DNA of 64,000 bases from Hydrangea macrophylla (Eukaryota; Streptophyta; Magnoliopsida; Cornales; Hydrangeaceae): NCBI GenBank assembly GCA_033977485.1, contig CM066988.1, forward strand, positions 77,101,669 through 77,165,668, in the 5' to 3' direction. Below, one piece after another: positions 1,555 through 64,000 of the stretch (within the stretch, counting starts at the first letter, position 1; each line of letters starts with the position of its first letter). Both the position numbers and the translations under genes were made by a program. The notes beneath the pieces are model-generated. The model was given only the letters and a program-made list of their open reading frames with translations. It ran no database searches and was not told the DNA's origin.

Positions 1555-2873
1555 TGATTGGAAGAGAACAAGTCCTGATTACAGACCTTAATTCACGTTT
1601 GGTAGAACCTTTTATCTTGTTTTTGAGTACTTTTACTTTGTTTTTCATTTTCTGTCAGGATTTCGAAGAAAGCAAGAGTTTCAGGCTTAATAAGGAGAAA
1701 AGGCAGAAAGAAAGAACAAGAAAAAGCCACCTCGCACGAGTGGCCTGCTCACGCGACAATCCGCAACATCGCTCATGCAGCCCGCTCGCGCGATCCGTAC
1801 AAAAAAGTGAAAATGCGTATTTTTGAGTGCTGAAGACCCCTACGTGAACGAAACTGCCTAATTACGTCCAGAAAGGAAAATATTGCAGTTTCTGTCAGAA
1901 TAGGTTTACCAAAGCTCTCATAAACCCTCTACAACTATATGTAGATCAATCTAAAGCAATTGGGGGGTTACTCATCCTTACACACATTATTAGACATCAA
2001 CTTTGGAGGCAAGGAGAAGAAGAAGATCTAGTTTGAAGGTTTCTGATGGCTACAATCAACTTCATCTCAATGTTTTCCTCAATTATGCGCAACTAAACCA
2101 CTCTTCTAGGGGGTTTCAATGAAACCCTAGCTATGAAAGGGGGATTTCATCGCTTTTTTACTTTATGATTTAATGTATTGGATAGTAATTGCATGTTTGA
2201 GGATTATATTTATATAATCGATTTTAATGATGATAATCAAGAGTACTTTGGATCTATTCTTGTCTTAGATTTTTCCTTATGCTTATTGAACCCAATATTC
2301 CTTAATTTCAGTGACTATTAGGAATATTTACACACAATAGTGCTTATGTGATTGCAATGTTTACATCTTTTATAATTCATGCTTAGGAAAGATGAGTTAT
2401 GCTACACCCTAGTTATAGGTAGATCATTCATGTGAACCGAAGATGAGTTATGCTTAGATTGAACTAGCGATACCCTCTTGTTAGTACTATTGGGCTTGTA
2501 GCTACGATATATCGTGACTATCCAATCATAAAACTTAAAGTAGAAAGTTTAGACCCCCGATGCATAGTTAGTGGTGGATTTGTAATCCTAGATCTCATCC
2601 ACTAATATTAAAACAACTTTCAATCTTGCAATCGTTTACCTAGTTTAATTTTAGAATATTACTCCCATAATTCTATAGTTTAATTTCATAGTTTAGTTAA
2701 TAGTAGAAATTAAATCAACAACCAATCAAACTTCTGTTTTCAATAACTAAATAGATTTAGGTTTTTCTAATTAAAGGATAAAAATAACCAATCCCTGTGG
2801 GTTCGACCTTTACTTTCACACTACAAATGCTTTAAAGTAAAGCATACTTTTTATCTTGATTCTAAGAAGATCA
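1555..2873 (+). repeat. 5' LTR of element A
   Basis: It starts TGATTGGAAGAGAAC and ends ATCA directly before a primer-binding site. The start and the whole order of blocks parallel the LTR of element D, which begins TGATCGGGAGAGAAC. It holds a degenerate CG-rich palindrome cluster (about 1730-1797) and a weak TATA-like word near 1927. The five bases before it are GTCAC; the matching right-hand copy is not in the window. Confidence 0.8.
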
Positions 2874-2878
2874 ATTTT

Positions 2879-2896
2879 TGGCGCCATTGCCGGGGA
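2879..2896 (+). promoter_or_regulatory. Primer-binding site of A (tRNA-Asp)
   Basis: TGGCGCCATTGCCGGGGA lies five bases after the LTR end. It differs at one base from the perfect site in elements B and D, which is complementary to the 3' end of plant tRNA-Asp. This primes minus-strand cDNA synthesis and fixes the orientation of A as plus. Confidence 0.88.
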
Positions 2897-3162
2897 TTGC
2901 GATATTTTTGCCATTAATTTTTAGAATCTTTATTTAGATAGTTAGTAAATATTATCTTAGATTTTATTTTCTTTATTTCTAGTTTAATTTTCGAGTCGCT
3001 AAATTATCCGTGTTGTTGCAGCTTACAAGTCATCAAAGTCTAGTTAGTTCGAGTGGAGCAGCAGTGCACGTCAACTGAGCTTACGTAAACCTGAAAATAA
3101 AATTGCAATCAATTGAAAAATATCAAGTAAACTCGTTGTTTTAAATTTTGCATCAAACCACT

Positions 3163-61700: not shown

Positions 61701-62765
61701 TTTGGTTTCATACAGAATCTGGATGAACCTTGTGTATACAAGAAATGTGAAGGAAAAGTGGTGGCTTTTCTTGTGCTTTACGTTGACGACATTCTACTCA
61801 TTGGAAATGATGTAGCGGCATTGTCAACGGTCAAGGTTTGGCTAGCTAGTACTTTCGATATGAAGGATCTAGGAGAGGCGAGCTATATTCTTGGGATAAA
61901 GCTCTTTCGGGATCGCAAGCGAAAGATAATGGGATTATCTCAAGCTGGTTATATCGATAAGGTGCTAACTAGGTTTTCAATGGATAATTCGAAGAAAGGT
62001 TTGTTACCTTTCAGGCATGGTTTAGCGTTCTCCAAGGACCAGTGTCCAAAGACACAGGAGGAGAGGAATCGCATGACAGGAGTTCCCTATGCTTCTGCAG
62101 TGGGAAGTCTCATGTATGCGATGTTATGCACTAGACCAGATATCTGCTTTGCCGTTGGCATGGTTAGCAGATATCAGTCGAATCCGGGTCCAGAACACTG
62201 GACAGCCGTTAAGCACATTCTTAAGTACTTGAGAAGAACTAAAGATTACATGCTTATGTACGGTGGTAGTGAGTTAATTCCAGTGGGATACACTGACTCG
62301 GACTTTATGTCAGATAAAGATTCGAGGAAGTCGACATCCGGTCATCTCTTTACCTTGGGAGGTGGTGCTGTCAGTTGGAGGAGCATTAAGCAGAAATGCA
62401 TTGCAGACTCAACTACAGAAGCTGAGTATGTGGCTGCTTGTGAAGCCGCAAAGGAAGCTGTTTGGCTCAAGAAGTTCCTTATGGAACTCGAGGTGGTACC
62501 AGCGTCGCTGTCGCCTATTACGCTTTATTGTGATAATAGTGGGGCAGTGGCTCAGTCCAAGGAGCCAAGGAACCACGGAAAGGGAAAGCACGTAGAGCGG
62601 AAATATCATCTTATCCGAGATATTGTTCAACGTGGAGATGTGACTGTCACCAAGATTGCCACAGCTGACAATCTTGCTGATCCGTTTACAAAGGCCTTGC
62701 CACAGAAGGTCTTTGATCGTCATCTAGATAGTCTAGGTCTTAGATGTAGTTCTGAATGGTTATGA
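58776..62765 (+). CDS. gag-pol: Copia-2 Gag-Pol polyprotein, intact (1329 aa)
   Basis: One uninterrupted frame encodes the complete set of Copia proteins. Rough residues: Gag of UBN2 type (15-210); a Gly/Lys-rich basic linker (215-260); zinc knuckle CX2CX4HX4C (262-276); aspartic protease with DSGA (about 307); GAG-pre-integrase block LWHMRLGH (about 449); integrase with HTDVCGP, RSDRGGEY and a GVAERRNR glutamate (510-610); reverse transcriptase from about 840 with YVDD (about 1002); RNase H from about 1170 with TTEAEYVAA and ending ADPFTKALP. Start ATG 58776 follows a 3' splice signal. Length is normal. No catalytic residue appears lost. Copia-2 is the best candidate here for a currently active autonomous element. 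Confidence 0.97.
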   Translation: MSGSAFSPLATILTQNKLTGNNYTEWKRNLDIVLTAEDHIYVLTTPCPEEPAANASAAARREFDKWKKSNGMARCYILASMANVLQHQYQSNNSASDIIESLKKMFGEHGRPARQVAMQKIMSAKMSEGTPVKEHVLKMIGYLNELETLGANIDAQTQVDMILNTLSPSFAQFKLNYNMNKMDFSMSELMSSLLAAEGVIKPGGSVLNIEKSASSSRSMPRGKKGKKKTSTGGSSVGPVPKIAKSKGKGKGKGKVGGQGKGKCFQCGEKGHWKRNCPEFLATRVQGMIESHVIEVSFITDTSNTWCIDSGATNHICNSLQGFRSTRKCSDGEIVLTLGSSATVSAVAIGVVVLEFLDNKVLILSDVLYVPSMRRNLISVSNLSNNGYSFHFGTEVVIKRNSSFICSGVKSNGLYVITPNISKDSCMELNNSVVTVPSKRKRPSTNPTKLWHMRLGHINLNRIGRLVKEGVLGDLVLEPIEVCESCLEGKMTKRPFLAKGNRTNALLELVHTDVCGPINIRARGGYEYFITFTDDHSRYGYVYLMQHKSEAFEKFKEFRAEVEKQLGTHIKAIRSDRGGEYLSNEFIDHLVQNGILSQLTAPGTPQQNGVAERRNRTLLDMTRSMMSYSELPLFLWGYALETAAYILNLVPSKSVPRTPREMWIGRKPSLQHLRIWGCPAHVLKGKMSKLDSRSEVCYFVGYPKGTYGWYFYDPREQKVFVSTNAIFLEDDYIMNHKPKGRIDLREIEGEPSVQPVVNNDVNQENTTSSPISAPVPRRSGRIISQPDRYMFLGEVFEAVSIESESDPTTYEEAMTDVDSAHWVKAMKAELESMDSNQVWDLVELPANIKPIGCKWVYKRKRGSDGKVETFKARLVAKGYTQREGIDYEETFSPVAMLKSIRILLSVAACLDFEIWQMDVKTAFLNGNLEEDIYMQQPEGFIAGRKGNLVCKLQKSIYGLKQASRSWNIRFDQAVKSFGFIQNLDEPCVYKKCEGKVVAFLVLYVDDILLIGNDVAALSTVKVWLASTFDMKDLGEASYILGIKLFRDRKRKIMGLSQAGYIDKVLTRFSMDNSKKGLLPFRHGLAFSKDQCPKTQEERNRMTGVPYASAVGSLMYAMLCTRPDICFAVGMVSRYQSNPGPEHWTAVKHILKYLRRTKDYMLMYGGSELIPVGYTDSDFMSDKDSRKSTSGHLFTLGGGAVSWRSIKQKCIADSTTEAEYVAACEAAKEAVWLKKFLMELEVVPASLSPITLYCDNSGAVAQSKEPRNHGKGKHVERKYHLIRDIVQRGDVTVTKIATADNLADPFTKALPQKVFDRHLDSLGLRCSSEWL

Positions 62766-62768
62766 GTG

Positions 62769-62780
62769 CAAGTGGGAGTT
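62769..62780 (+). promoter_or_regulatory. Polypurine tract of Copia-2
   Basis: caagtgggagtt directly precedes the TG start of the 3' LTR, four bases after the polyprotein stop. The gag-pol frame therefore ends almost at the LTR. Confidence 0.8.
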
Positions 62781-64000
62781 TGTTGGGTTTGTGCCCTCAA
62801 ACCATTACTTTCTGTATGAGACATTGACATTTTAATATATGGATATCAGCTTTACATTTTATTGTGTATGTTCTTTTCATGAGATGATTGTTAATCCTTA
62901 AGTATTATAGTAAGTAATTCGTGTGTGTATGAGATGCACACAAGTGAGATACGAATTACTATTCTTTAATACTTAGAATGTGTCACAGTGGATGATGAGA
63001 CTGGATACCTCATCAAGTCTACACTGTAGCATAATTAACTACCATTGGATGGAGTGATTAATCTCAATCACTAGAGTGTAGCTCTTAGTTGATATGCTAG
63101 TGCTTATAGTGCATTGACGGACCTGAGTTTCCTATTGACGCTTAAGGCTGTCAAACAGTCAATAGGAACTCATAACTTGTATAAGGTACGTGTTCTCAAT
63201 CTTGAGACGATTATGAACACAGACTGTGGATATGACTGCTTTGATTTACCAATCAGTGAGGTCTATAAAAGATCAACACCTGGGTATCTTGGGTATGTCA
63301 TGTTCATAGGGTTGTGAACATGCATTGTCAAGATAGAATCTACCCTCTGTATCAGAGTAAGCATTCCCTTGAGAATGTCACCAAGTCGATTACTGAGTAC
63401 TGCAGTCTTGTTGATAAGAGTTATCAACATGTTTGGTAATCATGAGAGGTGAATGGGACTCAAGGAATACAAGAAGTAATCATGATTCAGGTTGACAGTT
63501 ACAGTTATCCGATTACCTGAATATGATTACGAATGCTGACGGTAGAGGGACATTAGTGCACCATACAAGTCTAGTTATCGCTTCGGATATGTTCTTTTGC
63601 GTTGGAGTTCAGTTATCGTTTTATAGTGGAGTAAACTTTAACTGACCAGTTAGTTAGTTTGCTGATCAAAGAGTTTGGTCATGGTAATTAACAAACTGGT
63701 CTGAGCCAACAATAAAGAGCCTAGGAGGTCCCACTCTTAGCTCCGCCAGGATGCTTGGAAAGATGCTTGAGGATGATGTCCAGACAGGTTCGATCGATCG
63801 AAGATGTCTCGATCGATTGAAGTCTGCAGGTTCGATCGATCGAAGATGGTTCGATCGATCGAATGTTCGATCGATCGAAGGCACTTCGATCGCTCGAAGT
63901 CTAGGTCGGTTCTGGGAATCTATAAATAGGGCAGCTGCGTTCTGGAAAAGGTTGTTCGTCGTTTTGAACGTCAGAAGCTGCAGAAACTGTTTTGGAGTCC
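62781..64000 (+). repeat. 3' LTR of Copia-2 (first 1220 bp)
   Basis: Begins TGTTGGGTTTGTGCCC and follows the 5' LTR base for base as far as I can compare, including the palindrome cluster and TATA box (63921-63928). The window ends about 274 bp before its expected end. Confidence 0.95.

What the first reader, a model, noticed from the sequence alone, without database searches (positions are those of the whole stretch)
1730..63928. Different palindromes, same place: self-complementary motif clusters upstream of TATA boxes in unrelated elements
Promoter-like units at 1730 (A LTR), 10679 (B LTR), 13864 (C LTR), 22241 (B internal), 27155 (D LTR), 44118 (A internal), 46579 (G LTR), 55299 (J) and 56592 (Copia-2 LTR) each carry 5-12 short dyad motifs spaced about 15-40 bp, with a TATA-like box downstream (22-150 bp). 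The motif word differs between families (TTCGATCGATCGAA; CTCGCGCGAG and CGCGCGCG; CCAATCGATTGG; TGCCGNNNCGGCA), yet symmetry and position are kept across Gypsy and Copia. This argues that dyad symmetry or local DNA/RNA structure, not one transcription-factor site, is selected. Copia-1 and the F LTRs lack it, which gives internal controls. I cannot tell whether it has been described before.
Basis: partly seen in the sequence, partly recalled or inferred. Interest (0 to 1): 0.92.

Follow-up and report, generated by a model that had tools for sequence, protein, structure and literature searches.

The report
Paired palindrome arrays at retrotransposon promoters
Several unrelated plant jumping genes in this genome carry strictly spaced arrays of short self-complementary DNA words just upstream of their promoters, probably docking sites for a DNA-binding protein, which extends a pattern previously described for one group of plant retrotransposons.

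Summary
F and Copia-1 segments show nothing. Several more arrays were missed, and B, C and B-internal lie on the minus strand.

Tools add a grammar. In B, C, B's internal unit and Copia-2, 14-bp words (TTCGATCGATCGAA type) form doublets of 19-bp pitch, usually three per array. In the 2.22-Gb genome the word occurs 101,717 times (reversed control 8); word-then-CTATAAATA within 10-40 bp 9,489 times, reverse order 0. A second array lies downstream; in the internal unit it sits in a predicted intron of an accessory gene.

Palindromic arrays upstream of TATA and of the envelope gene are published for Sireviruses (PMC2829016), as Sirevirus-specific; Athila's ENV promoter is published too. New here: Gypsy and non-Sirevirus Copia carriers, one pitch across superfamilies, scale. 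'Structure, not a factor site' is not supported; cooperative sites for a dimeric protein fit best. No binding, TSS or siRNA data were available.

The parts
1555..2873 (+). A LTR (Gypsy), ends read by eye; degenerate array 1730-1794, TATA-like about 1935
   Evidence: array not above shuffles
9407..11046 (-). B 3' LTR; array 1 10679-10790 (3 doublets), TATA-like about 10609, array 2 10078-10197 (3 doublets)
12696..14345 (-). C 3' LTR; array 1 13864-13942, TATA about 13821, array 2 13326-13446
18048..19685 (-). C 5' LTR; array 2 18679-18799, array 1 19216-19283
22227..22350 (-). B internal promoter: array 1 22240-22350, then TATTTAAA about 22234; a PPT-like GTTAGTTGGGGG lies just upstream
   Evidence: three further copies in L018, L024, L027
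21688..22044 (-). predicted 5'UTR intron (GAG|GTAAGG ... TTCCAG|G) holding array 2 21766-21882
   Evidence: splice sites predicted by eye only
20184..21713 (-). accessory ORF after integrase, ATG about 21676, broken by in-frame stops into three pieces; weak Transposase_32; basic NLS-like stretch, no strong hydrophobic span
   Evidence: intact 470-aa relative L024:3018-4427
26977..28363 (+). D 5' LTR (Gypsy, pol-less copy); CTCGCGCGAG-type array 27154-27315, TATA 27456
31658..31889 (+). D internal array, same word class as D LTR
34041..35414 (+). D 3' LTR; array 34218-34366, one word fewer than the 5' LTR
37857..39295 (-). B 5' LTR; array 2 38333-38452, array 1 38936-39047
44117..44467 (+). A internal array then CTATAAATAGG at 44457
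46579..46937 (+). G array (CGGCATTCANTGAGTGCCG, 22-bp pitch), TATATATAG at 46927; LTR status not established
53372..53590 (+). J-type array (CCAATCGATTGG), left copy, TATA-like 53580
55299..55540 (+). J-type array, right copy, TATA 55533
55585..57078 (+). Copia-2 5' LTR; array 1 56593-56702 (3 doublets), CTATAAATAG at 56724
57250..57548 (+). Copia-2 leader arrays 2 (57250-57368) and 3 (57481-57548), between PBS and gag
62781..64000 (+). Copia-2 3' LTR (cut by window end); array 63789-63898

Best explanation
The arrays are clustered binding sites for a dimeric, sequence-specific nuclear protein that switches on or keeps open the retrotransposon promoters. Each word is two copies of one half-site (YTCRAKC for the GATC class) head to head; two words at fixed pitch form a doublet, and usually three doublets form an array just upstream of TATA. 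A second array a few hundred bases downstream, inside the transcript or a predicted intron, would act as a further enhancer. The same word in Copia-2 and in the B/C Gypsy elements suggests both use one factor, most simply a host one; other families use other factors or specificity variants. Shown: words, spacing, position, genome-wide recurrence, unrelated flanks. Inferred: protein binding, dimer, cooperativity, activation.
For: Pitch: in 9 GATC-class arrays (51 words, 42 gaps) the gaps are 5 bp x23, 11 x8, 2 x5, others 6. By loose match over the whole window, second LTR copies included, 33 of 62 adjacent distances <=60 bp are exactly 19. Genome: 24,268 exact pairs with gap 0-30 (control 0); 9,533 with exactly 5 bp (control 0). 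In the first 50 places listed, gaps 5 x25, 2 x7, 11 x2, 4 x2; the other 14 (21, 28, 29, 30 bp) fit, by eye, an imperfect word in between. CCAATCGATTGG pairs: 4,944 (control 0); of the first 50, gap 8 x32, 9 x10. CTCGCGCGAG pairs: 995 (control 0). Polarity: word then CTATAAATA at 10-40 bp 9,489, reverse order 0; most listed matches share Copia-2-type flanks, so events are fewer than sites. Not a microsatellite: CGATCGATCGATCG 1,744 (control 68) vs 101,717 (control 8). Unrelated flanks. Words better conserved than spacers between B and C LTRs (75-77% vs 58-61%; outside 56-61%).
Against: No binding, expression or TSS data. RNA of most arrays folds far better than shuffles (16 segments, z -0.7 to -7.7), although self-complementary repeats must. 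A weak excess of arm matching remains (p 0.088 overall, 0.042 in sample arrays alone). Tandem duplication can spread a fixed pitch by descent. The comparison of the two LTRs of one copy is mixed: in C words are 96.5% against 98.1% outside, in B 96.4% against 93.3%, so it does not cleanly show selection on active copies only. J arrays are not CpG-rich (o/e 0.73-0.75, window 0.73) while the other 19 stretches measured are 1.4-2.7. No known plant factor was matched; no motif library was available. RM-versus-spacer identities depend on calling words by similarity, which biases them upward.
Confidence: 0.6

Rival explanations
1. The arrays are kept for nucleic-acid structure: self-complementary words let the RNA (U3 at the 3' end, leader, intron) or DNA fold into hairpins, for packaging, export, or as siRNA decoys or targets, as argued for maize Sireviruses.
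For: 14 of 16 array segments fold at z below -2.5; the 5-bp spacer would suit a hairpin loop; symmetry is kept across word classes; palindromic Sirevirus LTR regions are small-RNA hotspots (passages of PMC10760457 and PMC5311732).
Against: Arm changes within arrays are hardly compensated, doublet stems are not compensated, unrelated families share one word and pitch rather than just symmetry, and array 1 lies upstream of TATA in the units read.
Confidence: 0.15
2. The factor is encoded by the Gypsy elements themselves: the accessory ORF behind the internal promoter makes a nuclear protein that binds the words in the LTR, in its own promoter and in its own first intron, a VANC-like self-activating or anti-silencing loop, and Copia-2 exploits it. 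(A special case of the best explanation.)
For: Same word in LTR, internal promoter and predicted intron of B, and in three further copies of the internal unit. The ORF is intact at 470 aa in L024, with basic NLS-like and acidic stretches. VANC motifs likewise sit as tandem arrays in introns and upstream regions and co-evolve with the protein (PMC5735166 passages). An accessory gene with its own promoter and a nuclear product is reported for maize Grande (cited in PMC11963269).
Against: No DNA-binding fold shown; only a weak Transposase_32 match (E 1.6e-7, below the cut-off); no relatives in the protein searches and no significant PDB match. Copia-2 shares the word without any such gene (its ORF ends about 15 bp before the LTR). 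VANC21's motif is read in one orientation, and 'palindrom' does not occur in that paper's main text.
Confidence: 0.2
3. The arrays are largely neutral tandem repeats made by slippage and spread by copy number, kept only because retrotransposons multiply.
For: Word number changes between the LTRs of one copy (D 9 vs 8, C array 1 5 vs 4); TRF sees 35-44-bp periods.
Against: Words conserved over diverged spacers between B and C, identical pitch in unrelated elements, polarity to TATA, not microsatellite.
Confidence: 0.07
4. One promoter module was exchanged between Copia-2 and the B/C Gypsy lineage long ago by recombination, explaining shared word and pitch without a shared factor.
For: Shared two-array layout and pitch.
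Against: No similarity once words are masked, spacers not alike; a very old exchange cannot be excluded. The J and CAGTCGACTG classes show about the same pitch with other words.
Confidence: 0.12

Closest known systems
Sirevirus RM boxes (Bousios et al. 2010, PMC2829016; section 9 with Table 3 and passages read)
   Same: Palindromic words, many per element, family-specific; [quoted passage not shown] Tobacco Tnd-1 has ACAATCGATTGT, close to J's CCAATCGATTGG.
   Different: There called Sirevirus-specific with a CGG-CCG core in all but Tnd-1. Here in Ty3/Gypsy and in a Copia element that fails Sirevirus features; cores mostly TCGATCGA or TCGCGCGA. Doublet pitch and a downstream array did not appear in the parts I read.
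Maize Sirevirus LTR palindromes as small-RNA hotspots (Bousios 2016, not held; seen through passages of PMC10760457 and PMC5311732)
   Same: Palindrome-rich regulatory part of the LTR.
   Different: [quoted passage not shown] here Gypsy elements carry the arrays. No small-RNA data here.
Athila6A internal ENV promoter and intron (Panda et al. 2016, PMC4977677, passages)
   Same: Gypsy element with a promoter for the ENV ORF, and an intron in its annotation.
   Different: No palindrome array is mentioned at that promoter in the passages read.
VANC / VANDAL anti-silencing motifs (Hosaka et al. 2017, PMC5735166, passages)
   Same: Short family-specific motifs in tandem arrays in non-coding regions and introns of a transposon, evolving by tandem duplication.
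   Different: DNA transposons, motif arrayed in one orientation, element protein shown to bind; none of that is shown here.
Grande accessory gene of maize (as cited and described in PMC11963269, passages)
   Same: Gene between pol and the 3' LTR with its own promoter and a nuclear product.
   Different: Antisense in Grande, sense here; no palindrome array mentioned in the passages read.
SIRC cassettes of Arabidopsis (PMC10342631, passages)
   Same: Short repeats with diverse spacers, some palindromic, found among others in ATHILA2 and ATHILA6A.
   Different: Defined by a CRISPR finder, not by promoter position.

Membership tests
Sirevirus (for Copia-2) | 5'LTR/PBS junction CA-ATTGG-TATCAGAGC | tested here: met
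   CAATTGGTATCAGAGC at 57077-57092 (feature)
Sirevirus (for Copia-2) | terminal PPT AGGGGGAG followed by AT/TG, multiple PPTs, long linker (mean 1.5 kb) | tested here: not met
   AGTGGGAG-TT-TG and about 15 bp between ORF end 62765 and LTR 62781 (features)
Sirevirus RM boxes | palindromic words, >=8 copies per element, upstream of TATA in LTR | tested here: met
   B LTR 12 words, D LTR 9 by scaffold match, Copia-2 6 in the LTR plus 10 in the leader; J arrays have 7 each by the scan, G 8
Sirevirus RM boxes | CGG-CCG core | tested here: not met
   only the G word has it; Tnd-1 is the published exception
Sirevirus RM boxes | further copies upstream of the ENV-position gene | tested here: met
   B internal array upstream of the accessory ORF, 4 copies seen; for the A and D internal arrays no such ORF was found
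Athila-type Gypsy (A, B, C, D) | Gypsy order gag-AP-RT-RH-INT then an extra ORF before the 3' LTR | tested here: inconclusive
   Pfam pieces, assigned to elements by position and strand: B gag, AP, RNase H, integrase; A gag, RT, RNase H, integrase zinc-binding; D gag and AP only; C none found
Athila-type Gypsy (A, B, C, D) | extra PPT in the linker (Athila4, Calypso per PMC2829016) | tested here: met
   TTAGTTGGGGG upstream of the internal array in window, L018 and L027; TAGTTGGGTG in L024; only B-type units looked at
Athila-type Gypsy (A, B, C, D) | RT phylogeny within the Athila clade | not tested
   no reference RT set fetched; the tRNA-Asp reading of the TGGCGCCGTTGCCGGGG junction is from memory
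VANC-like system | element-encoded protein binds the array and removes silencing | not testable with these tools
   needs binding and methylation assays

The most novel reading that the evidence does not exclude
Gypsy elements of this plant encode a nuclear accessory protein that binds 19-bp doublets of TTCGATCGATCGAA in their LTRs, in the accessory gene's own promoter and in its first intron, a retrotransposon counterpart of VANC, while an unrelated Copia family has evolved the same array and lives off that protein; together they have seeded about 100,000 copies of one 14-bp word in a 2.2-Gb genome.
Probability: 0.17. Interest if true: 0.88.

Novelty: new variant of a known kind. Interest (0 to 1): 0.62.

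Why it matters
If the arrays are sites for one dimeric factor, then Copia and Gypsy elements have converged on, or share, a precise promoter code, and a single protein could control a large share of a plant genome's retrotransposons. The strict doublet pitch gives a defined bait for identifying that protein; the 2010 Sirevirus paper could not name a factor for its boxes. It also supplies loci where promoter function and small-RNA targeting can be separated.

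Tried and rejected
Microsatellite origin: rejected. Recent recombination between families: rejected by masked comparison. Insertion preference for palindromes (PMC6911290 passages) does not explain arrays inside elements at a fixed place. A polarity inside doublets seen in the window (AGC variant in the outer-left half 10/24 vs 1/24) did not replicate as outer-vs-inner in the sample (9/62 vs 14/62) and was dropped. 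A first pooled arm test on the sample gave strong matching (589 vs 530.7+-7.9); it mixed word classes, so I repeated it within clusters. Accessory-protein relatives: none in two protein searches, only PDB matches with E 0.2 or worse. Viral contigs: no match. Exact-word literature searches gave nothing on these elements (1, 5 and 24 papers, judged by title; PMC10211496, a pepper tandem-repeat paper, was the one and I did not read it). Other literature searches: all in a library of openly licensed PMC papers only; one search listed two annotation papers (PMC8282616, PMC11219922) that I did not read. Fits of D and A words to the 14-bp scaffold depend on register. In the survey, L019 is a satellite and supplies many dyad windows, so its 94 of 1580 windows (0 of 1580 shuffled) overstates arrays; L017 and L023 also hold repeats of other kinds.

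Full report
What is there. The window is a nest of plant LTR retrotransposons. Self-comparison gives the LTR pairs of B (94-96%), C (97%), D (99%) and Copia-2 (100%, cut) and an inverted F pair (90%). Pfam on ORF pieces gives Copia-1 (3786-8435, minus), Copia-2 (58770-62765, plus), and Gypsy-type gag, protease, RT, RNase H and integrase pieces that I assign by position and strand to A, B and D. B and C are minus-strand elements: their 3' ends show CTAGTTGGGGG before the LTR. The finding gave these units without strand.

Is it more than chance? Perfect palindromes with arms >=7 number 37 against 5.2+-1.9 in shuffles. A fairer test asks for one dyad word repeated within 250 bp: 18 of 511 windows reach six copies, none of 1533 shuffled windows does, and the shuffled maximum is 5. 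For the nine named loci, seven beat all 40 shuffles; A LTR (25/40) and C LTR cluster 1 (6/40) do not, and a second segment of A internal gives 3/40.

Grammar. A scan with a 14-bp scaffold showed that the words come in doublets. In nine non-redundant GATC-class arrays (51 words from B LTR, C LTR, B internal and Copia-2), the gaps between neighbouring words are 5 bp in 23 of 42, 11 bp in 8, 2 bp in 5, 1 bp in 2, 9 bp in 2, and 10 and 4 bp once each. Seven of the nine arrays have six words, mostly as three doublets; the other two have five and four. A loose match (<=4 mismatches) finds 102 words in the window against 24.8 in shuffles. J-type arrays (CCAATCGATTGG) alternate about 20 and 25 bp, G has a 22-bp pitch, D 13 and 23-25 bp in scaffold register. 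The sample added another J-type array (20, 23, 20, 25, 20, 25, 19, 25, 21) and a CAGTCGACTG array (50, 21, 23, 21, 51, 20).

One word or many? The words of A/D (CTCGCTCGCGCGAG) and of B/C/Copia-2 (TTCGATCGATCGAA) fit one 14-bp scaffold that differs mainly at the fifth base of each half. J can be read as the same scaffold with outer CpG turned to CpA/TpG. G is a different, interrupted palindrome. So 'different palindromes' is true in part.

Symmetry or half-sites? If structure were selected, a change in one arm should be matched in the other. Within arrays it is barely so: 290 matched arm positions of 357 against 284.8+-4.2 by permutation (p 0.13); 154 mismatches against 162.9+-6.1 in 115 words (p 0.088), 99 against 108.0+-4.8 in the 70 sample words alone (p 0.042), 116 against 117.3+-3.4 in other word classes (p 0.40). 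Doublet stems: 270 of 336 against 267.6+-4.0 (p 0.32). Across word classes symmetry is strongly kept (297 vs 397 mismatches). RNA folding is strong in most of 16 segments (z -0.7 to -7.7; 14 below -2.5), but that follows from self-complementary words.

Common origin? B LTR and B internal, C LTR and B internal, and each of the three against Copia-2, share no significant similarity once words are masked (best E 0.046); spacers of Copia-2 and Gypsy doublets are no more alike than shuffled. A recent exchange is excluded, an ancient one is not. Between B and C LTRs, word columns are 75-77% identical against 58-61% for spacers and 56-61% outside. Between the two LTRs of one copy the result is mixed: C words 96.5% against 98.1% outside, B words 96.4% against 93.3% outside. 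Between four copies of the internal unit, words are 81-83% and the rest 54-70%. These figures lean towards the words because they were called by similarity.

The internal unit. In B (minus strand, 22350 to 21676) the order is PPT-like GTTAGTTGGGGG, array 1, TATTTAAA, a leader, splice donor GAG|GTAAGG, array 2, acceptor TTCCAG|G, then the ATG of an ORF beyond integrase. Three further copies, found in 24 stretches taken at set places in the genome (L018, L024, L027), keep an array, a YATTTAAA box (CATTTAAA in L024), an intron-like stretch with a second array and the ATG; donor and acceptor are less clear in L018 and L027. The ORF is broken in the window but intact at 470 aa in L024. It has an N-terminal Transposase_32-like domain (E 1.6e-7, below Pfam's cut-off), basic and acidic stretches like a nuclear protein, and no strong hydrophobic span (highest 19-residue mean 1.58 in the window's pieces, just under the usual membrane threshold of 1.6 as I recall it; 1.15 in L024). 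It has no relatives in the protein searches and no significant PDB match. Splicing, start site and location in the cell are predictions.

Genome scale. The window lies in a 2.22-Gb assembly of 19 contigs. TTCGATCGATCGAA occurs 101,717 times, its reversed control 8 times; the plain repeat CGATCGATCGATCG 1,744 times, control 68. Exact pairs within 30 bp: 24,268; with exactly 5 bp between: 9,533. CCAATCGATTGG pairs: 4,944. CTCGCGCGAG pairs: 995. The controls of these pair searches were 0. With CTATAAATA 10-40 bp away, the word lies upstream 9,489 times and downstream never. Most listed matches come from the Copia-2 type of promoter, often in pairs about 7.2 kb apart, so the number of independent events is much smaller. 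A survey of 20 stretches of 10 kb from two contigs found 74 words (<=3 mismatches) against 9 in each of two shuffles. In 24 stretches there were 13 arrays of four or more words (<=4 mismatches), all in four stretches, nine with exactly six; the one in L011 is J-type. With the scaffold score the 12 arrays of L018, L024 and L027 count 6,6,6,6; 5,6,7,6; 6,4,6,6.

What is known. Bousios and colleagues (PMC2829016) described palindromic repeated motifs in Sirevirus LTRs upstream of TATA and upstream of ENV, with family-specific words; Tnd-1's ACAATCGATTGT resembles J's word. They reported the motif absent from classic Copia elements. Later work, read here in passages only, ties these palindromes to small RNAs in maize and says maize Ty3 elements generally lack such a peak. 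Panda et al. annotate an ENV promoter and intron in Athila6A. Copia-2 is not a Sirevirus by its PPT (AGTGGGAG), attachment site (TT/TG) and roughly 15-bp linker, though its PBS junction matches. So the kind is known. Gypsy carriers, a non-Sirevirus Copia carrier, the doublet pitch shared across superfamilies, the downstream and intronic arrays, and the copy number are what I did not find in print, which cover openly licensed papers only.

Mechanism. Fixed pitch, a half-site that varies almost independently on each side, position upstream of TATA, unrelated flanks and recurrence at a second promoter together fit cooperative binding of a dimeric protein better than folding. A host factor is the simplest account of Copia-2 and B/C using the same word. 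A VANC-like element-encoded factor is the bolder account, and the accessory gene is the obvious candidate; nothing here shows that it binds DNA. Confidence is 0.6 for protein-binding arrays in general.

Noticed in passing
window 28812-35414: D lacks the pol part that A retains: by eye the sequence around 31450-31530 matches A around 43930-43990 (end of pol), yet D's LTRs are 99% identical, so a pol-less D copy was mobilised recently.
   Followed up: partly
window 27154-27315 vs 34218-34366: The D 5' and 3' LTR arrays differ by one 13-bp word unit, showing turnover between the LTRs of one copy.
   Followed up: partly
window 1356-1530: A 175-bp inverted repeat (79% in self-comparison), MITE-like foldback.
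   Followed up: no
window 22165-22178; L018, L024, L027: A single extra word, more or less decayed, lies at a similar place in the leader of the internal transcript, some 55-60 nt after the TATTTAAA box.
   Followed up: partly
L019 (C2:5000001-5010000): The stretch looks like a tandem satellite with TTCGTnACGAA dyads throughout.
   Followed up: no
L023:501-750: Dense TTTGTAACGGAT repeats in both orientations, unlike the promoter arrays.
   Followed up: no
window 53372-53590 and 55299-55540: Two J-type promoter copies flank the F minus-strand LTR and are about 63% alike in the aligned part, so J seems to be two diverged units rather than one split LTR.
   Followed up: partly
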